DNA from: Methanosarcina barkeri 3
GTDB taxonomy: Archaea; Halobacteriota; Methanosarcinia; Methanosarcinales; Methanosarcinaceae
Assembly: GCF_000970305.1 (NCBI RefSeq)
Contig: NZ_CP009517.1
Span: 1,798,001 to 1,862,000 of the forward strand
DNA length: 64,000 bases
Reading direction: 5' to 3'
In this document: piece by piece, positions 16,800 through 27,702 of the stretch
Numbering within the stretch: position 1 is the stretch's first letter
How the letters are laid out: each line of letters opens with the position of its first letter
The notes under the pieces: model-generated
Seen by the model: the letters and a program-made list of their open reading frames with translations, nothing else
Database searches by the model: none
Told to the model about the DNA's origin: nothing
Translations under genes and position numbers: made by a program

Positions 16800-17165
16800 A
16801 ATGTCAACCCACAACTATTGACCCATAACTGTTGACCCATAACTGTTGGGCTGCAACCGTTGACCCGCAACCGTTGCGCCTGTTGATCACGCCGTCGTGA
16901 TGTTTTAGATTTAGCAGTGATTTTCGCTCAAGCCTTTTTTAAAAAGGCTTGTGATCACGCCTATAGGGTTTGGGGATAAGTTCTTTAAATCCAAACGTTA
17001 CTGAGGTTTTCGGTCAAGCCTTTTTCCAAAAGGGTTGCGGTTAAGCCTTTTTAAAAAAGGGTTGCGGTTAAGCCTTTTTAAAAAAGGGTTGCGGTTAAGC
17101 CTTTTTAAAAAAGGCTTGTGATCACGCCGTGTCATGGATTTTTGATCAATCCTTTTAAAAAAATT
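16800..17165. repeat. Dispersed palindromic element, copy B, with tandem expansion
   Basis: Starts with short repeats of TGACCCATAACTGT (16808-16850), then CAACCGTTGCGCC, GATCACGCCTATAGGGTTTGG and CAAGCCTTTTTT/AAAAAGGCTTG hairpins as at 4255-4535. From 17030 to 17115 a 26-27-nt unit containing GGTTAAGCCTTTTTAAAAAA is tandemly repeated about three times. The block ends 27 nt before the EngB start. Confidence 0.8.
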
Positions 17166-17191: not shown

Positions 17192-17821
17192 ATGGAAACC
17201 AGTAAGACTGCAGCTGAAAGCGGAGTAAGCTTTGAGATTATCTTTGTAGGCCGTTCAAACGTGGGCAAATCCTCTTTGCTAAGGGAACTTTTCGGGGCGA
17301 AAGTAAGAGTAGGAAAACGCCCAGGAGTTACCCTGCGCCCTGCCCATGCTCAGGTTTCGGACATGCTTATCACGGATATGCCTGGCTTCGGCTTCATGAG
17401 CGGAGTAAAAGACAGGAAGCAGGATATCGTAAAAGATAAAACCGTGCACTATATCGAAGATAATGCCAAAAAGATCAAGCTCGGAGTGCTTGTTATAGAT
17501 GGCCCGGCTTTTCCGCAGATTGTGGACCGCTGGGACTCAAGAGACCAGATTCCGATAGACGTTGAAATGTTTGATTTTCTCAGGGAAGTCGGGATTGATA
17601 CCATTATTGCAGCAAACAAGATGGATAAAGTAAAAGAGAGCGAGTACGATCCCCTTCTTGACGAGATCGCAGCCCGTCTCGGGCTTGAGCCTCCCTGGCA
17701 GAACTGGAAACACATTATAGCGCCTATTAGCGCCAAAAAAGGAGACATGAAAGCTTTAAAAGGTCTGCTTCGGGACAGACTGCACGAAATGAAAAGAGAT
17801 GACCTATTCAAGTATGTTTGA
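17192..17821 (+). CDS. engB: EngB/YihA-family GTP-binding protein
   Basis: A 209-residue TrmE-Era-EngA-YihA family GTPase. G1 GRSNVGKSS (about 20), G2 Thr in PGVTLRP, G3 DMPGFG (about 66), G4 NKMD (about 143) and G5 ISA (about 184). Family members act in large-subunit ribosome assembly. Start chosen at ATG 17192, with GGAGG 8 nt upstream, rather than the TTG 24 nt earlier. The gene begins immediately downstream of a palindromic repeat block, so its promoter must lie within or beyond that block. Confidence 0.92.
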   Translation: METSKTAAESGVSFEIIFVGRSNVGKSSLLRELFGAKVRVGKRPGVTLRPAHAQVSDMLITDMPGFGFMSGVKDRKQDIVKDKTVHYIEDNAKKIKLGVLVIDGPAFPQIVDRWDSRDQIPIDVEMFDFLREVGIDTIIAANKMDKVKESEYDPLLDEIAARLGLEPPWQNWKHIIAPISAKKGDMKALKGLLRDRLHEMKRDDLFKYV

Positions 17822-17850
17822 TTTAAAAAAACTCGTCATAAGGCATATCG

Positions 17851-18363
17851 TCACAAAGCATGATTGCCATGTAACTTCACTTCTGAGTGGGTCTTATAAT
17901 ACCCAAAAAGTCTCTCTCCCCACTCAATAGCCTTTGGATCAGAGCTAAACAAACCTGTGGTTACATCATATTCAATGCCGCTTTTCTTGTACAGGCTTAA
18001 GGCAAGGCATTTATTCGTAACAATTAACCCCATTTTAAGGTCTTCACTTTTATATCTTAACTGAAAATTGCTATAACTCTTCAGTATCTCAAGTTTTTCT
18101 GCATAAGGCGACTGTTTTAATTCTTCTGCAATATGAAGAGGAACTATAAGCTCAACAGGGACTCCTTCTTTCACTTTTTCCGAGATGGAATCAGCATATC
18201 CTTCAGTTATCACGGACGATATACCGTATATATGTTCTGCCTCTTTAATCGTTTTTAACTGATTGGTGTAGACATTAAGGATTTTTGTTCTTCTGTCATG
18301 GAGAACTTTAGAATTATAAAGACATCCAATTTCTTTTAGCAATGGAGTGGGAATTCCTTCCAT
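17851..18363 (-). CDS. FilR1-domain (DUF1724) regulator lacking its HTH, copy 1
   Basis: A 170-residue reading frame matching the C-terminal ligand-binding FilR1/DUF1724 part of Methanosarcina transcription regulators (phrases EGIPxPLLKEIGCLYNS and KMGLIVTNKCLALSLYKK). Full-length relatives are about 250-270 aa with an N-terminal winged helix. The frame stays open upstream of ATG 18363 to 18444, encoding more family sequence (TVGTINKLKYFWSTHYMEG), and is cut by an in-frame TAG at 18445-18447. So the HTH is lost. A very similar second copy at 21400 is cut at the same point, so truncation preceded duplication. It may be a decaying pseudogene or a DNA-binding-free modulator; the intact frame in both copies slightly favours the latter. 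Confidence 0.7.
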   Translation of the reverse strand: MEGIPTPLLKEIGCLYNSKVLHDRRTKILNVYTNQLKTIKEAEHIYGISSVITEGYADSISEKVKEGVPVELIVPLHIAEELKQSPYAEKLEILKSYSNFQLRYKSEDLKMGLIVTNKCLALSLYKKSGIEYDVTTGLFSSDPKAIEWGERLFGYYKTHSEVKLHGNHAL

Positions 18364-18724
18364 GTAATGCGTAGACCAGAAATATTTGAGTTTATTAATT
18401 GTCCCAACTGTTGCAAAAGAGTCGGCTACTCCTGCGAGTTTTATCTAATAGTTCTATCTAGTATGTCAAATGATTGTTAATATTAAGTAACACTATGCTT
18501 AAATGGAATCATAAGTTAAGCATCTAGTTTGATAGTTTAATGATCTCGTTAAAACCTTTACAGTTTATATAATTTGTTTTAATAGTAATTAATGGAGCTC
18601 AAACAAACCTTCCAGAGTAAATTGAAACTCCACATGCCCTGAGGCAGGGAAATGATAGCTTTAAGAATACTTAAGGCTTGCCGGATCCTGCCTCATGGGA
18701 AACTAAACCAAAAGAGGTAAACGA
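18364..18724 (+). promoter_or_regulatory. Duplicated leader: TATA box plus nested hairpin, copy 1
   Basis: About 350 bp nearly identical to 21898-22254. It contains a TATA box TTTATATAAT (18564-18573) and, about 75-120 nt further on, a nested hairpin: outer stem TGAGGCAGG (18640-18648) with CCTGCCTCA (18687-18695), inner stem AGCTTTAAG with CTTAAGGCT. A GAGGT ribosome site follows just before ATG 18725. The expected transcript therefore has a roughly 130-nt structured 5' leader. Confidence 0.6.
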
Positions 18725-19612
18725 ATGACGGCGAAGACGAAATTTGGAATAGGAATACTACTTTTGACAACGCTGCTGATTGGCGTGGTATTTGCGCCGA
18801 GTGTGAGTGCAGATAGTACTGCAAAAGAAAGTCAAGACGAATCTATTGGAGATCCATGGTTCAAGAAGGGTGACGAATTAAATCGGCTTAGTGGTGATGA
18901 ACGTCGTGCCCTCGCTGAGAAAAACGAAACAGTAAGAAAAATGATTGAGGAAGATCTAAAGATTAAACCTGTGAGAATTGAAAACTCCAAGGACTTGGAA
19001 AATCTTCCTGCTAATTATCCCGAGGACATAAAGAAAATAATGATAGGAAATATCTCAGCAAAAAATGTTAATCTACAATCATCAGTTGCACAAACAACGA
19101 CGACAAACACAGTTAACGTTTGGATAATCGCAGATGAAGAATATAGGAGCACTTTTGGAAGTAATTGGAAAACTAAAGCATATAATACCATTGAAGGTGC
19201 CGATGATGCATTCAATAATGATCATAGTATAAATTTTGTGGTAGGTAAATACTCAACATGGGATAGTACTGACAGTGAGGATAATTGCAGCCTACTTCTC
19301 AGAGAAGCACAAAGTGAATCAGGGTGGAACTCTAACCATCAAGGCATGGATATGCTTGCCATTTTCACCGACCAAAGCATGGATAAAAGAGGTAGATCTG
19401 AGCATCTTGGTGATGCATGGATAATGAAACATCAGATCACTGCAGACTGGGATTGGCATGTTGGGCAACATGAAGCATCACATAACTATGGATGTCCAGA
19501 TCATGGATACACTGGTCCTGTCTGTATAATGACTTACGTCAATATGATGATAACAGCTAACTGGTGTGTAGACTGCGATCAAACCATCGAAACCCATAGA
19601 AATCATTTTTAA
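18725..19612 (+). CDS. Exported snapalysin-like zinc metalloprotease
   Basis: A 295-residue exported protein. The signal peptide (about 5-30) ends near SVSA. The zinc motif is HEASHNYGCPD (249-259): H249 and H253 are ligands, E250 the catalytic base, and D259 stands where most metzincins have a third His, the HExxHxxGxxD pattern of snapalysins (M7). VCIMTYVNMM follows as a likely Met-turn. Four Cys (257, about 268, 282, 285) could form disulfides outside the cell. Residues 30-120 look like a propeptide (charged, helical). It is driven from the duplicated hairpin leader, and a terminator-like palindrome follows. A decayed relative lies at 20058-20264. Target proteins unknown. Confidence 0.8.
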   Translation: MTAKTKFGIGILLLTTLLIGVVFAPSVSADSTAKESQDESIGDPWFKKGDELNRLSGDERRALAEKNETVRKMIEEDLKIKPVRIENSKDLENLPANYPEDIKKIMIGNISAKNVNLQSSVAQTTTTNTVNVWIIADEEYRSTFGSNWKTKAYNTIEGADDAFNNDHSINFVVGKYSTWDSTDSEDNCSLLLREAQSESGWNSNHQGMDMLAIFTDQSMDKRGRSEHLGDAWIMKHQITADWDWHVGQHEASHNYGCPDHGYTGPVCIMTYVNMMITANWCVDCDQTIETHRNHF

Positions 19613-19620
19613 ATTGTTTG

Positions 19621-19650
19621 TGTAGGATTTAATCCTACATTTTCTTTTAT
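19621..19650 (+). terminator. Palindrome with T-rich tail after metalloprotease
   Basis: TGTAGGATTTAATCCTACA followed by TTTTCTTTT, 8 nt after the stop codon; a good archaeal-style terminator candidate. Confidence 0.6.
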
Positions 19651-19670
19651 GGTTGCTTGAAGTGAGTTAT

Positions 19671-20012
19671 ATGAAATCAACAACAACAGCTTTAATGATT
19701 ATTTCTTTTGGAATCCTTGCACTATTTCTGGTTTTCTTTTTAGTGATTTATCAGCCTGGAGCAGGCATGTATGTTCGCGCAGATAAACTTCAGGATCCTC
19801 CAGAGAAATATGTGGAGTTCAGTTTAGCAGATATCGAGAAATACCCCTATGTTCAAGAAGCAGTAAAAAACCCAGGAACAGAAATTAAGCTCCCTTTCGA
19901 TAACGACGACGGAAATATGACAGAGTTTGCTAATATCATGTATGATAACGGAACTAATTATATAAAAATTAATAATGATTATTATGATATGCATTATGAA
20001 TCCGCTGACTAA
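19671..20012 (+). CDS. Small membrane protein, family copy 1
   Basis: 113 residues; ATG 19671, preceded by GAGTTAT. One N-terminal membrane segment (about 7-30, ALMIISFGILALFLVFFLVI), then YQPGAGMYVRADKL and an acidic outside domain ending YYDMHYESAD. Paralogues at 20826 and 24796 share the first 43 residues almost exactly and differ more in the C-terminal half. Function not recognised. It follows the metalloprotease; the paralogues also follow putative exported or membrane proteins in this block, so it may be a partner, immunity or chaperone protein for them (inference). Confidence 0.75.
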   Translation: MKSTTTALMIISFGILALFLVFFLVIYQPGAGMYVRADKLQDPPEKYVEFSLADIEKYPYVQEAVKNPGTEIKLPFDNDDGNMTEFANIMYDNGTNYIKINNDYYDMHYESAD

Positions 20013-20057
20013 TTTCCAAAAAAGGAAATCATACTATATAGATTTGATCAATAATTC

Positions 20058-20264
20058 GCCCTAACAACACAGACCACTGAAGATGGTTTTGATTGACCAC
20101 ATGATAGTATAGTTCAGCATGAAGCCTCTCATAATTTTGACGCAGATGATCAAAATTCTCCGCTTCATCCTGAGTGTATAATGAATTATGTTTATGCTCA
20201 ACAGGGTACAAATATATGGTGTACTTCCTGTCGTAACACCGTAGATTATGGAATAGACCATTAA
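20058..20264 (+). pseudogene. Decayed fragment of a snapalysin-like metalloprotease
   Basis: One frame gives QHEASHNF, then HPECIMNYVYAQQG and NIWCTSC, matching the end of the 18725 protease (QHEASHNY, VCIMTYVNMM, NWCVDC). The frame has no start codon and a TGA at 20094-20096, just before PHDSIVQHEASH. Only the last third of the gene remains. It is the remnant of a second protease gene lying after the first small membrane protein. Confidence 0.8.
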
Positions 20265-20294
20265 TAACTATATATAAAGGAATTGGGTGGGAAC

Positions 20295-20702
20295 ATGGAA
20301 AAAGTCAATAAAAAACTTCGCTATTTAGGAATAGCCCTTCTGATTTTAGCAGGATTTTTTATAATCCTACCATATCTTTTCATGGGTCCCCCTACATCTT
20401 TTTTTTGTGTCGAGAATGGAGATGAAACTAGTCACACAGTACTTATTAAAATAGTTAATTCAGATAATAAATCAATATTTGAAGAGAGTTATAAACTGTC
20501 TCCTCACGAAAAAGCAGAAGAATCTAAAAGTTTATGGTTATTGTCCAAGATGATTTTTCCATTAAATAAAAATAATTATACGATAAAGGCAACTTTAGAA
20601 AATAATATAAGCACGGAAGAAAGCATGTCTTTGAATCCCTGGACTAGCTTGCATATCTCAGTAGTAAATGAGTCTATTTTTATTGACAGACTCCAAGTTT
20701 AA
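20295..20702 (+). CDS. Membrane-anchored protein of unknown function
   Basis: 135 residues; start at ATG 20295 preceded by GGTGGGAAC. One N-terminal membrane segment (about 9-33), then an outside beta-rich domain with pattern HTVLIKIVNSDNKSIFEES and a second strand-rich half, resembling a single immunoglobulin-like or transthyretin-like fold. No family recognised. Positioned between the metalloprotease fragment and the second small membrane protein. A degenerate copy of its last 35 codons lies at 21298-21400. Confidence 0.7.
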   Translation: MEKVNKKLRYLGIALLILAGFFIILPYLFMGPPTSFFCVENGDETSHTVLIKIVNSDNKSIFEESYKLSPHEKAEESKSLWLLSKMIFPLNKNNYTIKATLENNISTEESMSLNPWTSLHISVVNESIFIDRLQV

Positions 20703-20825
20703 TAGAAACACAACTATTGGCTTTGTAGAAATTCTTAATTTGAGCCCAAAACAGTTTAGAATATTGTATTTATGTTGCACGTTGACAGTTTAATTGTTAT
20801 TTCATTGTCGCTTGAAGAGGGTTAT

Positions 20826-21164
20826 ATGAAATCAACGACAACAGCTCTAATGATTATTTCTTTTGGAATCCTTGCACTATTTCTGGTTTTCTTTTTAGTG
20901 ATTTATCAGCCTGGAGCAGGTATGTATGTTCGCGCAGATAAACTTCAGGATCCACCAGAGAGATATACAGAGTTCAGTTTAGAAGATCTTGAGAAATATC
21001 CATGTGTTAAAGAAGCAGTAAAAAATCCAGGAAAAGAAATTAAAGTTCCTTCCAACTACCATGAAAATGTATCGGAGTTTGGTAAAATATCATCCAATAA
21101 TGAAACTAACTATATAAAAGTTAATAATGAGTATTATGATATCCATTATGAATCTGCTGACTAA
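20826..21164 (+). CDS. Small membrane protein, family copy 2
   Basis: 112 residues; ATG 20826. N-terminal membrane segment identical to the 19671 paralogue, then the same YQPGAGMYVRADKL stretch. The C-terminal half (EKYPCVKEAVKNPGKEIKVP) is nearer to the 24796 copy than to the 19671 copy. No function recognised. Upstream, TTGAAGAGGGTTAT is shared with the other copies, so the duplicated unit includes the ribosome-site region. Confidence 0.75.
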   Translation: MKSTTTALMIISFGILALFLVFFLVIYQPGAGMYVRADKLQDPPERYTEFSLEDLEKYPCVKEAVKNPGKEIKVPSNYHENVSEFGKISSNNETNYIKVNNEYYDIHYESAD

Positions 21165-21297
21165 TCGATGAAACGGGATACAGAATTTTGGTATTTCTGA
21201 ATTATAGACTGCAGTGTTAAAACACAGAAACAAAGCACAGAAACTAGATCATTTGGTGTTTGTGCAGTTAAAACACTTGGTGCTGACTACATTGGAA

Positions 21298-21400
21298 GAA
21301 TAATATAGACATAGAGACGAGCATATCTTTGAATTCTTAGACTAGTTTGTATATTTCAATAATATATCCGTCTATTTTCACTGACGCACTTGGAATCTAT
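21298..21400 (+). pseudogene. Degenerate 3' end of the 20295-type gene
   Basis: Nucleotide match to 20603-20702: AATATAGACATAGAGACGAG against the start of that stretch, CTTTGAATTCTTAGACTAG against CTTTGAATCCCTGGACTAG, and GTCTATTTTCACTGACGCAC against GTCTATTTTTATTGACAGAC. Stops break the frame. It shows the 20295 gene was once duplicated here. Confidence 0.75.
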
Positions 21401-21897
21401 TATATTTTTGTGAACCCTGCCTCCCTTTTATAATACCCAAAAAGCCTCTCTCCCCACTCAATAGCCTTTTGATCAGAGCTAAACAAACCTGTGGTTATGT
21501 CATATTCAATGCCTCTTCTCTTGTACAGGCTTAAGGCAAGGCATTTATCCGTAACAATTAGTCCCATTTTAAGGTCTTCATTTTTATATCTTAACTGAAA
21601 ATTGTTATAACTTTTCAGTACCTCAAGTTTTTCTGCATAAGGCGACTGTTTTAATTCTTCTGCAACATGAAGAGGAATTATAAGCTCAACAGAGGCTCCT
21701 TCTTTCACTTTTTCCGAGATGGAATCAGCATATCCTTCAGTTATCACGGATGATATGCCGTGTATATGTTCTGCCTCTTTAATCGTTTTTAACTGATTGG
21801 TGTAGACATTAAGGATTTTTGTTCTTCTGTCATGGAAAATCATAGAATTATAAAGACATCCAATTTCTTTTAACAAAAAATCGGGAATTCCCTCCAT
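21400..21897 (-). CDS. FilR1-domain (DUF1724) regulator lacking its HTH, copy 2
   Basis: 165 residues, close to 90% identical to the 17851 copy over the first 150 residues; the last ten (REAGFTKI end) differ because the duplicated block ends there and runs into the 21298 fragment. Upstream of ATG 21897 the family frame continues to 21978 and is cut by the same in-frame TAG (21979-21981). Ligand-binding domain only, no winged helix. It diverges from the second copy of the hairpin leader and the C39-like peptidase. Same doubt between pseudogene and functional modulator. Confidence 0.7.
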   Translation of the reverse strand: MEGIPDFLLKEIGCLYNSMIFHDRRTKILNVYTNQLKTIKEAEHIHGISSVITEGYADSISEKVKEGASVELIIPLHVAEELKQSPYAEKLEVLKSYNNFQLRYKNEDLKMGLIVTDKCLALSLYKRRGIEYDITTGLFSSDQKAIEWGERLFGYYKREAGFTKI

Positions 21898-22254
21898 GTA
21901 ATGCGTAGACCAGAAATATTTGAATTTATTAATTGTCCCAAATGTTGCAAAAGAGTCAGCTACTCCTGCGAGTTTTATCTAATAGTTCTATCTAGTATGT
22001 CAAATGATTGTTAATATTAAGTAACACTATGCTTAAATGGAATCATAAATTAAGCATCTAGTTTGATAGTTTAATGATCCCGTTAAAACCTTTACAGTTT
22101 ATATAATTTGTTTTAATAGTAGTTAATGGAGCTCAAACAAACCTTCCAGAGTAGATTGGAGCTCCACATGCCTTGAGGCAGGGAAATTATAGCTTTAAGA
22201 ATACTTAAGGTTTGCCGGATCCTGCCTCGTGAGTAAAGAAGAGAGGCAAGAAGA
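21898..22254 (+). promoter_or_regulatory. Duplicated leader: TATA box plus nested hairpin, copy 2
   Basis: Near-identical to 18364-18724. TATA box TTTATATAAT (22098-22107), outer stem TGAGGCAGG (22174-22182) with CCTGCCTC (22221-22228), inner stem AGCTTTAAG with CTTAAGGTT. The inner-stem change relative to copy 1 (GGCT to GGTT) still pairs by a G-U wobble. GAGAGGCAAGAAGA precedes ATG 22255. Confidence 0.6.
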
Positions 22255-23478
22255 ATGAAAAATTTGAAAACAAAGATGGTTTTTGCTATAATGCTACTAA
22301 TGGTAGCGTTAATACCAGCCGTGAGTGCACAGAAAGAGGATAACTATTCTGTAACTGCTGAGGAAGCTTTAGAACATGCAAATGCACACATGATAAGTTT
22401 TATAGCATCTGACGCACCAAACTTTGAAAACTGGACAGGAGCATCAATTGATCCCAAACCACTGGAGCTTTATGACATAAATGGTCAGAAATTGTTTTAT
22501 CAATTTTCTGTATACAAAAATAACAATCTAATAGGTAGAATAGATGTTTGTACCGATAAAACGCTTGGAGCTTCAGTTAACAACATTGAATTCGGTTCTA
22601 AACCCTTTAAAGTAGCTGAAGCCACAAAAAAATCAATAGAAATTGCCAAAAACAGATATCCAACTAGAGAAATTAAATCAACTAATATGGTTGTATACAG
22701 CTATCCGCGTATTGGGGCAATGACCGTAGTAAAAGACAAAACAACAGGAAAAGAATATAGGATATTTGTAGATGCATATACCCTTGATGAGGTGGAAGAT
22801 AAACCAGCAACTGAAATCGAACCTGGAGTTTGGTCAATGTACGATCAGCTTTTGATGAATGGAAAGGACAATAATTTAAAGGAATGGAAGAAAAGTGATC
22901 AACTCACAAACTCTATAGAACAAGCAGCATCTAATAAAAAGGTTAATATTAATGTGTCGGTCACTGAAGAAAATATGAAAAAACTAAGTACTGATGCAGC
23001 AACAACGTTAATCACAGGTAAAAATCTCTCTGTTCCCTTATATGGGCAAGAAAGAAATTATTACTGTGGCCCAGCAAGTTGCCAAATGATTGGTAAATAC
23101 ATATGTAACATATATCGGACCCAAAATTACATCTATGATTTTCAGGGATGGCATAACCATAATGACCCAGATGGAGGGATCTCAGATAGCGATGCTGAAG
23201 ATTATTGTGGCTATAGTCAGCAGGAAGGGGGATTAGGACAGAGTGGCACACAAATTAATACTATTATGAGTTTTACGACCGCTAAAACTGAGATCAACAA
23301 CTACAGACCGTTTTTCACTATGATTCCAGGGCATTTTCGAGTTTGTTATGGATATGGAGATACTGGGATTGGATTATATTATATATATATTAATGACCCG
23401 TTGCCTGTTGGATCTGGTCACCAAACGGTGGAAGTCAATGGTGCTCAAGAAAGAAAGCGTATATATGTGAGGCCTTAA
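22255..23478 (+). CDS. Exported C39-like cysteine peptidase
   Basis: 407 residues with a signal peptide ending near VSA (residue 24). Residues 30-230 look like a PepSY-like or prodomain region (EEALEHANAH, GASVNNIEFGSKPFKVAEA). The C-terminal 150 residues are a papain-like C39 fold: nucleophile C271 in NYYCGPASCQM, His360 in PGHFRVCYGYG, and N380-D381 in YINDPLP. Such domains cleave after double-Gly leaders in bacteriocin exporters or act as free exported peptidases; with no ABC transporter attached this is the latter. It shares the leader of the metalloprotease but not its sequence. A remnant of a second copy lies at 25175-25354. UPF0228 follows. Confidence 0.8.
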   Translation: MKNLKTKMVFAIMLLMVALIPAVSAQKEDNYSVTAEEALEHANAHMISFIASDAPNFENWTGASIDPKPLELYDINGQKLFYQFSVYKNNNLIGRIDVCTDKTLGASVNNIEFGSKPFKVAEATKKSIEIAKNRYPTREIKSTNMVVYSYPRIGAMTVVKDKTTGKEYRIFVDAYTLDEVEDKPATEIEPGVWSMYDQLLMNGKDNNLKEWKKSDQLTNSIEQAASNKKVNINVSVTEENMKKLSTDAATTLITGKNLSVPLYGQERNYYCGPASCQMIGKYICNIYRTQNYIYDFQGWHNHNDPDGGISDSDAEDYCGYSQQEGGLGQSGTQINTIMSFTTAKTEINNYRPFFTMIPGHFRVCYGYGDTGIGLYYIYINDPLPVGSGHQTVEVNGAQERKRIYVRP

Positions 23479-23586
23479 AATTCCTAAAAGGAGTTCGACA
23501 AATCTCTGGTTTCAATGATTGCTTATATCTTATACAGATGCCAGTCTATGGGTTTATCGAATCTTCTTCATTTTTTAGGTGTTGAT

Positions 23587-24186
23587 ATGAGCAAAATCAA
23601 TAAGGTAACCATTTTTTTTATCATTTTTTTTATTTTTGTAATGATTGCTGGACGATTTATAAAAACTCCAGTTAATACATCTACACCAGATCCCGAATCG
23701 CAAGTGGGTGGTCTGTATATTCAATTTAAAGATGGAATTTCTGAGCCAGAAGTAAAAGTCATTCTTCAAAATATTAATATGACTCGGAACTATAGAATGG
23801 AATATGATACTAATAAGACGGATGAAAGGTATTACATAATGGTGGACAAACACAATTGGGACGTCATAAGAAACGAGCTTAATAAAGCGATGAGGGAAGA
23901 GAAAAAAGATTGGATTGTATATTCTCCTGCTCACATTATCAGAAAAGGAGATTATTATGTTTTTACGGTCTCTGAACAAGCAACCAAAGACGAAAAATTT
24001 CTTGCAATACTGGATAAGTATAATATTGAGGTGAAAAGGTTTGTTTGGTGCAAAATTCGTTTTCTTCATAGTGATGGCTCCCTGACGTATTGGATTCCTA
24101 AAGAAGATGCAATAAGGATAAAAAATGAGCTTGAAAAAAATGAAAATGTCTTTACTGTACAGCTAAGTTATATTTATAGTAACTAA
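23587..24186 (+). CDS. UPF0228 family membrane protein
   Basis: 199 residues; ATG 23587 is preceded by AGGTG at 6 nt, chosen over an upstream start. One N-terminal membrane segment (about 7-25), then an outside domain with the family phrases [27 protein letters not shown] and DYYVFTV, and an end [13 protein letters not shown]0228 is a Methanosarcina-restricted family of unknown function. The repeated EPEV-IL and YYIIVD blocks hint at two ferredoxin-like subdomains, as in protease propeptides or inhibitors (inference). It follows the C39-like peptidase here and again, in decayed form, at 25187-25974, so the two are a linked pair. Confidence 0.85.
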
Positions 24187-24795
24187 AGTCTTCGATTGAC
24201 TACATTACTCAACGGATAATTGGATAACTACTGTGTTGTGCCCTAAAATTATTTCGTATGTTTAAGAACTTTTAATACTTCAATCTTGTACAATAGCAGA
24301 TAGCTCAAAGACTAAAAGCTGAGGGAAGTTCATTGGTTATCGGTTAAGGAATTTTCTTGCCCGAAATATATCGATTTTGCACCAGAAGCCTACCTTAAAT
24401 TTTGGCCAATTCACATGAAATCGATACCCTGTTCCAGCCTACAATAAAATCAAAAATTTTACAACTATTGAGGAAGTGGGGGCAATTTATCAAGATTCTT
24501 CACTTAACCGAAGACGCATGAAGGGAATTTCAGTTACATTTGGTTCAAAAGAATAAACATAAATTATGAAACATTAGGTAATTTTGGGGTCGGCATTCAG
24601 GAGGTGTATTTCTACCAGTATATGGGGGATCAGATTGATGTAACTGTCCAGTTTCAGATTGATTTTCGTGGGAAAAATACTGTCAGTAGCTATATACATA
24701 TAATCTTTTTGCGCAAAGTCTCTAACAATCAAAATCAGAGAATAATCATAGGACTCAAAGACTTTATTTTGTGATGTGCTTAGGGAGAGGGTTAT
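24187..24795 (+). other. Gap with start-less open frame, probable gene remnant
   Basis: No complete gene. From about 24505 to 24774 one frame stays open without ATG and includes INYETLGNFGVGIQEVYFYQ and QIDVTVQFQIDF. Another short open frame before it reads SSLNRRRMKGISVTFGSKE. These look like remains of an exported protein, the likely effector slot before the third small membrane protein; family not recognised. Confidence 0.4.
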
Positions 24796-25134
24796 ATGAA
24801 ATCAACGACAACAGCTCTAATGATTATTTCTTTTGGAATCCTTGCACTATTTCTGGTTTTCTTTTTAGTGATTTATCAGCCTGGAGCAGGTATGTATGTT
24901 CGCGCAGATAAACTTCAAGACTCGCCAGAGAGATATACAGAGTTCAGTTTAGAAGATCTTGAGAAATATCCCGGTATTAAAGAGGCGGTGATGAACCCAG
25001 GAAAAGATATTAAAGTTCCTTCCAACTACCATGAAAATATAACGGAGTTCGGAAAAATCTCATCCAATAACGGAACTAATTATATAAAAGTTAATAATGA
25101 GTATTATGATATGCATTGTGAATTTGCTGACTAA
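24796..25134 (+). CDS. Small membrane protein, family copy 3
   Basis: 112 residues; ATG 24796 preceded by GGGAGAGGGTTAT. The first 43 residues are the same as in the 19671 and 20826 copies (membrane segment plus YQPGAGMYVRADKL); the acidic C-terminus ends YYDMHCEFAD. The third use of this gene in 5.5 kb. The nearly unchanged N-terminal half against a drifting C-terminal half suggests gene conversion or selection on the membrane part. Function unknown. Confidence 0.75.
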   Translation: MKSTTTALMIISFGILALFLVFFLVIYQPGAGMYVRADKLQDSPERYTEFSLEDLEKYPGIKEAVMNPGKDIKVPSNYHENITEFGKISSNNGTNYIKVNNEYYDMHCEFAD

Positions 25135-25174
25135 ACGGTAAATACAGAATATAAGATTTTGATGTCTTTCTTAA

Positions 25175-25354
25175 ATTAACAGTTATAGACCATTTAAAAG
25201 TGGAATTACTGGTCATGCTCGAGTTTGTAAGGGATATTCATATACTGATTTTGGGGTACAATACTTAAAGATAAATGATCCATGGCCCGTTGGATCTGGT
25301 TTTTCTACTGTAGAAAGTCCAGGTCAAGAAGTTAACCGTATATATGTGAGATGA
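25175..25354 (+). pseudogene. Decayed 3' end of a C39-like peptidase gene
   Basis: Frame at 25187 reads RPFKSGITGHARVCKGY, then KINDPWPVGSGFSTVE and NRIYVR, matching the end of the 22255 peptidase (RPFFTMIPGHFRVCYGY, INDPLPVGSG, KRIYVRP). The catalytic His and Asn-Asp remain but the Cys part is gone. A TAA precedes the match, so it cannot be expressed as a peptidase. Confidence 0.85.
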
Positions 25355-25377
25355 GGAGTTTTACTCCTCATCTTTTT
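25350..25377 (+). terminator. Strong hairpin terminator
   Basis: GATGAGGAGT TTT ACTCCTCATC TTTTT: a perfect 10-bp stem over the stop codon of the C39 remnant, followed by T5. It was presumably the terminator of the once-intact gene. Confidence 0.75.
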
Positions 25378-25388
25378 GTGGTATAGAT

Positions 25389-25974
25389 ATGAGTAAAATT
25401 AGTAAGAAAATTGCAGTTTTTATTATTTTTCTGATTCTTATCATACTCTGGGGAGTTATAAAAATGCCAATGGATACGAAAAATCCAGTTAATAAACCAC
25501 TAGTAGGCACTCTCTTTGTCGAGTTTGAAAATGGAACTACTGAACCGGAAGTTCAATCTATTCTCGAAAACTGCAATATACCCGTAAACTATAGTATAAG
25601 AATATAATTCTGAAATTATGTCAAAAAGGTACTATATAATCGTAGACCCAGGCAAAAGAAATATTATAAGAGAAGAATTGCGGAAAGAGAAGAATTGGAC
25701 TGACCCTATATTCCCTGATTTCAAAAAAGGAAATTATTATGTGATCACAGTAACTAAACAAGCTATCGAGGACGAAAGTTTTCTCGATATAATAGAAAAA
25801 AATAACCTTCGTGTGAAAAATTCCATCTTGTGTCTTATCTGTTTTGTAGATGGATCAACTAATTCAAATGAAAAAAGGAGTTGGATTTCGGAGAGTGATG
25901 CAACCAGAATCAAAAATGAGCTTGAAGTGAATGGAAAGGTTTTGACCGTAGGGATTGGTTATATTGAGGGGTAA
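25389..25974 (+). pseudogene. UPF0228 family gene, frameshifted
   Basis: The N-terminal half (ATG 25389 to TAA 25607: membrane segment, GTLFVEFENGTTEPEVQSIL, NYSIR) and the C-terminal half (SEIMSKRYYIIVD onward to 25974) together make one full UPF0228 protein of about 194 residues. The frames are offset by one base near 25600: removing one A after the SIR codons joins NYSIR to YNSEIMSKRYY as in intact relatives. No homopolymer run lies at the site. Either a recent inactivation or a sequence error; both halves are otherwise well preserved. Relative of the 23587 gene. Confidence 0.85.
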
Positions 25975-25995
25975 GCTAACATCAGCCACCACTTT

Positions 25996-27702
25996 TTACA
26001 GCCTTTTCAACTGCTGGCTGTATACCTTTCCAATTCTCTGGATTGTATCGGCTTCTTCAGGGTCTTTATCGTCCCGGATGCGGATAAAACGTGGAAAACG
26101 AAGCGCAAAACCGGAGTCATAATTGGGGCTTTTCTGGATTTCCTCAAAGGCGATTTCCAGAACTATCTTCGGTCGGATTGCAAATACACCGCCTGCTTCT
26201 CCGCCTTCCATGAGCCCGGAAAGCATCTCTGTAAGCTCCTTTAGCTGGTCATCGGTCAGGCCCGTACCAACCTTGCCGACCTGAAGATAACGCAGGGTTT
26301 CTGGGTCATAACAGGCAACCGTGTAGGAACCTATGAGATTTGCGCGCCTGCCAAAGCCCCATTCCGCCCCAACAACTACAAGGTCAAGAGTTTCCATAAG
26401 AGGCTTTTTCTTAAGCCAGTTTTTGCCTCGTTTGCCAGGGGAATAAAGCGAATTCGGGTTTTTGACCATAACTCCTTCGTGCCCGGCTTCTAAGGCTTCC
26501 TTATAGATCTTCTCTATAAGCTCCAGGTCTCCGGTTATCACCTGTTTGTCCACGCAAATGGATTTTGAATCCTCAACCGAACTTTCAACACAGGACTCAA
26601 GTGCTTTTCGCCGTTCGATCAGAGGCAGGTCAATTAGCGTTTTTCCGTTTAAGTACATAATGTCAAAAAGATTGAGCTGAATAGGGATACCAAGGGCTTT
26701 TTCTTCCACGTCGTACTTGCGCCGGAAACGTTTAAGGATCTCCTGGAATGCTCTGGGCTTACCATTCTCGTCCACTGCAACGGCTTCTCCGTCAAGGATT
26801 GCGGATTCGGCCTTTATATGTTTGCGGATTATCTCTACAAGGTCAGGGAGGGAATTTGTTACATTTTCAAGTTTCCGTGAGAAAAGCGTAACCGAATTTC
26901 CAGCCTTATGGACCTGGACTCTTGCCCCGTCGAATTTCCATTCGATTGCAGCCTCCTTCATTTCCATTATATCGGCAACTATATCAGGACTGATCTGTGA
27001 GAGCATCATCTTAATCGGACGGTTGATTTCAATTCCCAGGTGTTTCAGGGCTTCCACCCCACCTTCCTTGGCAGTTGCAGCAACTATCCCAAGGTCATTC
27101 GTAACCATAAAGGCATGCTCAACCACATCAGCAGGCACGGAGAAAGCTTTTGCAATAGCGTCTCTTACAACACCTTCTCCGACGCCTATACGGAGTTCCT
27201 CAAGCGCAAGCCTGGAAATATACTTTGCTTCCCTTGGGGTCGAAGAATTAAAGAGGAACTGAAGGTTCTTTATCTTAATGTCCTGTGAGCCTTTCCCCGA
27301 GGCTTCTGAAGCGATTTTAAAACGATTATAGACTTCGGTTATTGAGAGCTCTGGATGTTCTTCGAAGAAAGAAGAAAAAGTAACCTGGTTTTTCCTTTTT
27401 TCCTTAAGGATAAGAAGAGCTGTGTCTCCGATATCCCCAGTAGTCCGAATAAGAGATTCTATGCTTTTTACTGGCATTCCGGAGGCCCTGGAAAGAGAAA
27501 CATACAGCAGACTCGTACCAATTCCCAATTGCTCTCCACTCCAGGCAGGAAAAACCTCACTCATAATAAAATGGGTTGCAATGGGAAGTTCTTCGACATC
27601 AACCATTCTAAGAAGGTCAGCAACCCTACTTGTAGTATCAATTGTACTCGAGATTTTTTCAATTGCCTGGCAGGTTTCTGCAAATTCCCTGAAACTTGTC
27701 AT
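25996..27702 (-). CDS. lig: ATP-dependent DNA ligase
   Basis: 568-residue archaeal replicative DNA ligase, sealing nicks via an enzyme-AMP intermediate. An N-terminal DNA-binding domain (1-215), then the adenylation domain with motif [11 protein letters not shown] (Lys near 248), motif [12 protein letters not shown], motif [10 protein letters not shown], motif V WLKKKP and a C-terminal OB fold with motif [16 protein letters not shown]. Start set at ATG 27702 (MTSFREF), the usual family N-terminus, rather than the TTG two codons earlier. Full length, no defect. A 13-nt tandem array separates it from the upstream homoserine dehydrogenase gene on the same strand. Confidence 0.97.

What the first reader, a model, noticed from the sequence alone, without database searches (positions are those of the whole stretch)
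18364..22254. One leader reused for two unrelated exported peptidases
A ~350-bp block (18364-18724 and 21898-22254) is nearly identical, yet the genes it drives, a snapalysin-like metalloprotease and a C39-like cysteine peptidase, are unrelated in sequence. Each leader diverges from a FilR1-domain gene. This looks like a cassette system in which regulator and leader are kept and the exported effector is swapped.
Basis: partly seen in the sequence, partly recalled or inferred. Interest (0 to 1): 0.78.

Follow-up and report, generated by a model that had tools for sequence, protein, structure and literature searches.

The report
RNA switch before secreted-protein genes
The repeated stretch is a copy of a previously undescribed folded RNA 'leader' that methane-producing archaea and their relatives carry, dozens of times per genome in some species, in front of many unrelated secreted-protein genes, and its structure suggests that a small antisense RNA flips it to hide the ribosome-binding site and turn those genes off.

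Summary
One 804-bp block (17894-18697 / 21428-22231, 94.5% identical) holds a FilR1-domain fragment plus leader, and stops just before a reprolysin-type (M12) and a C39-like peptidase with no detectable similarity. The 3' ~135 bp (18590-18724, 22124-22254) is one member of a structured 5'-leader RNA absent from Rfam: about 18 copies in this genome, 27/31 Methanosarcina genomes, 101/186 genomes of the order, and weaker copies in other orders. Most copies sit ~110-155 nt before a signal-peptide gene; these genes fall into at least 42 unrelated families. It forms a 5' hairpin (P1) and two mutually exclusive helices. P2 (GAGGCA:UGCCUC) leaves the Shine-Dalgarno (SD) free; P3 pairs the same CCUC with that gene's own SD and covaries with it (0/5000 permutations, three sets). 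In M. mazei the published sRNA162 is transcribed antisense to one such leader; its 5' end stops exactly after the P2 5' strand. Modelling that occupancy drops SD accessibility from 0.51 to 0.06; stopping a few nt short does little. So this is most likely an antisense-gated translational switch for exported proteins. The adjacent FilR1 genes have lost their HTH domain.

The parts
18590..18724 (+). Leader RNA, copy 1 (5' UTR of the M12 peptidase gene)
   Evidence: R1 covariance-model hit G000:C1:1816590-1816727, 122 bits, E 1.7e-25
22124..22254 (+). Leader RNA, copy 2 (5' UTR of the C39-like peptidase gene)
   Evidence: R1 hit G000:C1:1820124-1820257, 125 bits, E 5.2e-26
18593..18632 (+). P1, 5' hairpin of copy 1 (arms ~18593-18603 and ~18622-18632; partly decayed in this copy)
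   Evidence: Helix covaries across the family: 8 of 13 pairs with two-sided changes, 12 of 13 in non-Methanosarcina copies
18641..18694 (+). P2 of copy 1: 5' strand ~18641-18649, 3' strand ~18686-18694, enclosing an inner hairpin ~18657-18678. P2 leaves the SD free
   Evidence: MFE structure; conserved pairing
18690..18718 (+). P3 of copy 1 (alternative to P2): GCCUC 18690-18694 pairs with the SD GAGGU 18714-18718
   Evidence: Own-SD covariation test 0/5000 permutations
22175..22228 (+). P2 of copy 2: GAGGC 22175-22179 with GCCUC 22224-22228
   Evidence: MFE structure
22224..22247 (+). P3 of copy 2: GCCUC 22224-22228 with the SD GAGGC 22243-22247
18564..18572 (+). TATA box of copy 1 (TTTATATAA), ~26 nt before the leader
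   Evidence: Sequence; family median of TATA-like sites is -26 from leader nt 1
18590..18645 (-). Stretch predicted to be covered by an antisense RNA starting at GAGGC (inferred for this locus; shown only for sRNA162/MM2442)
   Evidence: Position by homology with ten sRNA162 loci; no RF02792 hit in the window itself
18429..18592 (.). 164-bp promoter patch that replaces the 555 bp (FilR1 HTH plus native promoter) found at the closest relative
   Evidence: BLASTN vs L060 and L166
17851..18363 (-). FilR1_middle remnant 1, HTH lost (frame open back to ~18444)
21400..21897 (-). FilR1_middle remnant 2, HTH lost
18725..19612 (+). Exported reprolysin-like (M12) metallopeptidase with signal peptide
22255..23478 (+). 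Exported Peptidase_C39_2-like protein with signal peptide

Best explanation
The repeated block is a cis-regulatory leader RNA at the 5' end of mRNAs for exported proteins. SHOWN by sequence comparison: a 5' hairpin P1, then two mutually exclusive helices that share one strand. P2 leaves the SD open; P3 sequesters the gene's own SD. INFERRED: by default P2 forms and the gene is translated. A divergent, 5'-overlapping antisense RNA (the sRNA162 class) pairs with P1 and the 5' strand of P2, so P2 cannot form, P3 closes over the SD, and translation stops. The module (promoter, leader, often signal peptide) is copied and recombined in front of new exported proteins, many of them peptidases; the window holds two recent copies.
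For: Family: multi-copy in 25/31 (BLAST) and 27/31 (CM) Methanosarcina genomes; 101/186 genomes and 18/27 genera of the order; other families of the phylum, where 28 of 30 loci precede a signal-peptide ORF. Genes: 143 of 185 sites have an ORF starting 112-175 nt from the leader 5' end, 95% with a hydrophobic N-terminus against 48% of control ORFs, in at least 42 unrelated families. Structure: 87.8% and 84.8% of cells paired, more two-sided changes than shuffled or slid controls. P3: own-SD pairing beats permuted SDs, 0/5000, in Methanosarcina and in two further lineage sets. Antisense: ten top sRNA162 loci (one per genome) all lie opposite a leader with 53-54 nt overlap, and the sRNA 5' end falls right after the P2 strand. 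Published: MM2442 5' end by RACE overlaps sRNA162 by 65 nt, sRNA162 nt 1-65 binds that leader (gel shift, footprint), and overexpression slightly lowers MM2442 mRNA (PMC3510493). Model: with nt 1-to-AGGC occupied, P3 rises 0.18 to 0.73 and free SD falls 0.51 to 0.06; stopping a few nt short has little effect.
Against: No expression, probing or protein data for the window copies. Antisense RNA is demonstrated only for MM2442 (and the homologue sRNA171); the antisense TATA-like signal in other leaders is weaker than sense promoters, and the window has no sRNA162 match. At some sRNA162 loci the free leader is already predicted to favour P3. Permutation tests ignore relatedness. P2 is so conserved that its own covariation is limited. 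Copies without an intact ORF exist.
Confidence: 0.6

Rival explanations
1. The P2/P3 switch is real but driven by something other than antisense RNA: a small-molecule ligand, temperature, or an RNA-binding protein that reports export capacity. The leader is then a riboswitch, thermometer or protein-responsive leader of the secretome.
For: Conserved core UGCCC-NGAGGCA and inner hairpin across orders; P2/P3 energies within a few kcal/mol, median difference about 4; downstream genes share only their export.
Against: No match to any known riboswitch in Rfam. The one experimentally studied copy has a cis-antisense RNA ending exactly at the switch strand.
Confidence: 0.25
2. P1 is chiefly a DNA operator or promoter element (11-bp inverted repeat at the start site), and the repeat is a shared transcriptional control region.
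For: The P1 loop occurs in both orientations (about 20 of 104 sites inverted), as expected of a DNA site; FilR1 regulators divergent at 34 of 104 sites.
Against: An overlapping antisense RNA with the complementary hairpin explains the inversion equally well. P2 and P3 covary as RNA and follow each gene's SD. FilR1 is absent at most loci.
Confidence: 0.12
3. Nothing functional: a recent segmental duplication of a FilR1-promoter block in one genome.
For: The two copies do come from a recent duplication (94.5%), and the FilR1 part is a remnant.
Against: The 3' part is conserved as structure over several orders in front of exported-protein genes.
Confidence: 0.02

Closest known systems
sRNA162 (Rfam RF02792) and the MM2442 5' UTR of Methanosarcina mazei (Jaeger et al. 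2012, PMC3510493)
   Same: The MM2442-type leader is a member of the family (10 of 10 top sRNA162 loci carry it). It is the one case with a mapped 5' end, a bound antisense RNA and a neighbouring ArsR-type regulator gene.
   Different: The paper treats one locus, reports homologues only in two relatives, finds no RBS for MM2442 and leaves the effect open. Here the leader is a multi-copy family over several orders, tied to exported proteins, with an SD switch. An upstream TTG start with an SD, about 44 nt before the annotated start, would explain the missing RBS.
5' UTR of the Methanosarcina S-layer gene slmA1 (PMC3361143)
   Same: A conserved ~155-nt 5' UTR with predicted structure before an exported protein.
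   Different: S-layer genes in the genomes searched do not coincide with leader copies. It is a different leader.
Translational riboswitches and antisense-controlled leaders of bacteria
   Same: Mutually exclusive helices that open or sequester the SD.
   Different: No Rfam riboswitch match; archaeal; reused before dozens of unrelated exported proteins; candidate trigger is a divergent 5'-overlapping RNA.
FilR1 / ArsR-type methanogenesis regulators (PF08350)
   Same: The divergent gene fragments carry the FilR1_middle domain.
   Different: Both window copies lack the N-terminal HTH; most leaders have no such neighbour.

Membership tests
The leader family (model R1) | P1 hairpin followed by P2 and the conserved UGCCC-NGAGGCA / UGCCUC core | tested here: met
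   Window copies score 122-125 bits; helices conserved family-wide. P1 of copy 1 is partly decayed. The two copies were also in the model's seed.
The leader family (model R1) | Lies ~110-155 nt before a signal-peptide gene with P3 to that gene's SD | tested here: met
   Start codons at leader nt 136 and 132; P3 -9.3 and -10.2 kcal/mol
sRNA162-controlled leader (MM2442 type) | Overlapping antisense RNA matching RF02792 | tested here: not met
   No RF02792 match in window 17800-26000. The genome has its sRNA162 elsewhere (G000:C1:1708689-1708877), opposite another leader.
sRNA162-controlled leader (MM2442 type) | Same leader RNA on the opposite strand of sRNA162 | tested here: met
   10 of 10 top sRNA162 loci carry an R1 leader
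Known riboswitch / Rfam RNA class | Match to an Rfam covariance model in sense orientation | tested here: not met
   No credible sense-strand match to the leader in the window or in 40 further loci
Translational RNA switch in general | Demonstrated change of translation between two structures | not testable with these tools
   Needs probing and reporters; only modelled
FilR1-type transcription regulator | N-terminal winged HTH plus FilR1_middle domain | tested here: not met
   Window copies begin at residue 88 of the full-length homologue
Peptidase family M12 (18725-19612) and Peptidase_C39_2 (22255-23478) | Pfam match above curated cut-off | tested here: met
   Reprolysin_5 89 bits (cut-off 27); Peptidase_C39_2 49 bits (cut-off 24)

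The most novel reading that the evidence does not exclude
The Methanosarcina order and related orders share an ancient RNA-based control system for their secretome: hundreds of leaders, each with its own or a shared antisense RNA starting exactly at the switch strand, gate SD access of exported-protein mRNAs, while the leader plus signal peptide acts as a plug-in module for new secreted enzymes.
Probability: 0.45. Interest if true: 0.92.

Novelty: new variant of a known kind. Interest (0 to 1): 0.85.

Why it matters
Widespread natural RNA switches are rarely described in archaea, and a leader shared by dozens of unrelated secreted proteins over several orders would be a regulon defined by export rather than by pathway. 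It offers a function and mechanism for sRNA162, whose effect on MM2442 was left open in 2012, suggests why that gene seemed to have no ribosome-binding site, and makes precise, testable mutations possible in genetically tractable methanogens. It also offers a ready expression-and-secretion module.

Tried and rejected
FilR1 plus leader as a fixed regulatory cassette: rejected (34 of 104 and 0 of 81 loci, HTH lost here). Known riboswitch: no Rfam match. S-layer slmA1 leader: not the same. RNAalifold on the 79-sequence alignment returned no structure, so helices were named by hand and counted. A swap of an unrelated mature protein between window copy 1 and its closest relative L060: rejected, those two are distant homologues (25.6%, E 7e-14). 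Regulation of all leaders in trans by one sRNA162: pairing with the other leaders of this genome is predicted to be far weaker than with its cis target (-22 to -47 against -133 kcal/mol), so not favoured. Weak Rfam ncr1241 hit at 25337-25379: a terminator-like hairpin, not pursued. Protein structure prediction was not needed.

Full report
WHAT IS THERE. The two stretches are one 804-bp repeat, 94.5% identical (17894-18697 and 21428-22231). It runs from inside a FilR1-domain gene fragment through the leader and stops just before the start codons of two exported proteins, a reprolysin-like (M12) peptidase and a C39-like protein, which share no detectable similarity. The window lies in a 4.56-Mb genome whose genus is Methanosarcina: contigs of other genomes in the same genus match named Methanosarcina records in length. 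In the closest relative, G028 (its contigs match M. spelaei MC-15 in length), the same leader is 98% identical but lies beside a full-length FilR1 gene. In the window 555 bp, including the HTH-coding part and native promoter, have been replaced by 164 bp resembling the promoter of another leader of this genome (77%). Both window copies share this, so the FilR1 pieces are HTH-less remnants.

THE LEADER IS AN RNA FAMILY. The last ~135 bp recur through the genus (25/31 genomes). A covariance model (R1) built from 79 copies finds it in 27/31 Methanosarcina genomes, in about 18 places in this genome (weaker minus-strand matches mostly echo the palindromic P1), in 101/186 genomes and 18/27 genera of the order, including families other than that of Methanosarcina, and more weakly in further families of the phylum. 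290 of 345 sampled genomes of the phylum have none, which argues against loose matching. It is not in Rfam in sense orientation.

WHAT IT PRECEDES. Of 185 sites examined, 143 have an ORF of 60 aa or more starting 112-175 nt from the leader 5' end; 95% of these have a strongly hydrophobic N-terminus, against 48% of control ORFs; the mature parts fall into at least 42 BLAST-unrelated groups. Pfam finds mostly peptidases among the recognisable ones: reprolysins, matrixin, C39-like, subtilase, C25. Outside the order, 28 of 30 loci again start with a signal-peptide ORF. S-layer genes do not carry it.

MODULE SHUFFLING. Leader similarity does not follow protein family: 56 of 78 leaders have their nearest leader in front of an unrelated protein. 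At L071 and L117 leaders 99% identical and signal peptides identical over 25 aa precede unrelated mature proteins. Divergent FilR1 genes are found at 34 of 104 Methanosarcina sites and none of 81 others.

STRUCTURE. P1 is a 5' hairpin; P2 pairs GAGGCA with UGCCUC around an inner hairpin. 87.8% of cells pair in Methanosarcina (slid controls 25-51%), and in 56 copies from other genera and families 84.8% pair, with 179 two-sided changes against 75.5 in shuffles (that alignment leans towards the model). The 3' strand of P2 (CCUC plus the next bases) can instead pair with the gene's own SD (P3). Variants change on both sides: CCUCG/CGAGG, CCUCCUG/CAGGAG, CCUCCUAG/CUAGGAG, CCUCUU/AAGAGG. Own-SD pairing averages -8.8 kcal/mol against -7.15 (sd 0.23) with other genes' SDs, 0/5000 permutations. 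The same holds separately in other genera and families of the order and in other orders, 0/5000 each. P2 and P3 cannot coexist; P2 is favoured in 90 of 106 leaders, by a median of about 4 kcal/mol.

LINK TO sRNA162. An antisense Rfam match led to sRNA162. Its top locus in each of ten genomes has an R1 leader on the opposite strand with 53-54 nt overlap, and the sRNA 5' end lies exactly after the leader's (G)AGGC, i.e. it covers the P2 5' strand. Published work on M. mazei: sRNA162 is processed to stable 5' fragments of 55-65 nt, overlaps the MM2442 mRNA 5' end by 65 nt, binds that leader by its first 65 nt, and slightly lowers the mRNA when overexpressed; the authors saw no RBS for MM2442 and left the outcome open (PMC3510493). 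In the homologous locus (L286) a TTG start with SD AAGAGGTGG lies at leader nt 130, giving a full signal peptide, which would place the annotated start ~44 nt too far downstream. That L286 (G008) is the M. mazei locus is inferred from the top score and the layout, not from a label.

MODEL. If leader nt 1 through AGGC are occupied, predicted P3 rises from 0.18 to 0.73 and free SD falls from 0.51 to 0.06 over 110 leaders (83 fall by more than 0.2, 1 rises); occupancy stopping short of AGGC leaves 0.47. For window copy 2 free SD is 0.10 unbound, 0.95 with only P1 and its flank covered, and 0.00 with AGGC covered. This is an energy calculation, not an experiment. At some sRNA162 loci the free leader already favours P3, so the direction or range of control may differ by locus.

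P1 INVERSION. In about 20 of 104 Methanosarcina leaders the P1 loop is the reverse complement of the usual loop. This fits a hairpin shared by two overlapping divergent transcripts, where inversion would be neutral, or a DNA operator.

LIMITS. No expression data for the window; antisense RNA shown for one locus and its homologue only; permutations ignore kinship; genomes in the search tool are unnamed; signal peptides were judged by hydrophobicity, not by a dedicated predictor, and the control ORFs were not filtered for real genes; the absence of prior description rests on Rfam 15 and the held open-access papers.

Noticed in passing
L286 649-1425 (-), MM2442-type gene: A TTG start with SD AAGAGGTGG lies ~44 nt upstream of the start implied by the published 184-nt 5' UTR; it would restore the signal peptide and explain the reported missing RBS.
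   Followed up: partly
P1 loop at about 20 leaders, e.g. L025:10807, L112:8494, L071:1565: The loop of P1 is flipped (reverse complement) between the inverted arms at some loci, with both orientations present in one genome.
   Followed up: partly
window 20040-20262: Remnant of a third M12-type peptidase 3' end (IVQHEASHNFDADDQ...CIMNYVY) between the two cassettes.
   Followed up: no
window 19674-20012, 20826-21164, 24796-25134: Three copies (77-93% identical over 300 nt) of a 112-aa membrane-anchored protein, without Pfam match in the two scanned, each near a peptidase or its remnant.
   Followed up: no
window 23587-24186 and 25389-25965: A UPF0228 gene and a second, partly similar and possibly broken copy downstream of the C39-like gene.
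   Followed up: no
window 16918-17138: 27-bp tandem repeat with palindromic AAGCCTTTTTAAAAAAGG units upstream of a GTPase gene.
   Followed up: no
L166 (1695972), L167 (1700832), L174 (1706624), L175 (2673510) of the own genome: Leader copies without an intact ORF at the usual distance: possible decayed cassettes or stand-alone RNAs.
   Followed up: no
L273 and L283: Exact leader matches in MAGs labelled Prevotellaceae and Clostridia; probably Methanosarcina contigs binned wrongly.
   Followed up: no
leader nt ~76-95, antisense strand: Conserved CTTAAGTA/CTTAAATA-like motif that could be the antisense promoter; best antisense TATA score falls there in 122 of 185 leaders, but the motif overlaps the P2 inner hairpin.
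   Followed up: partly
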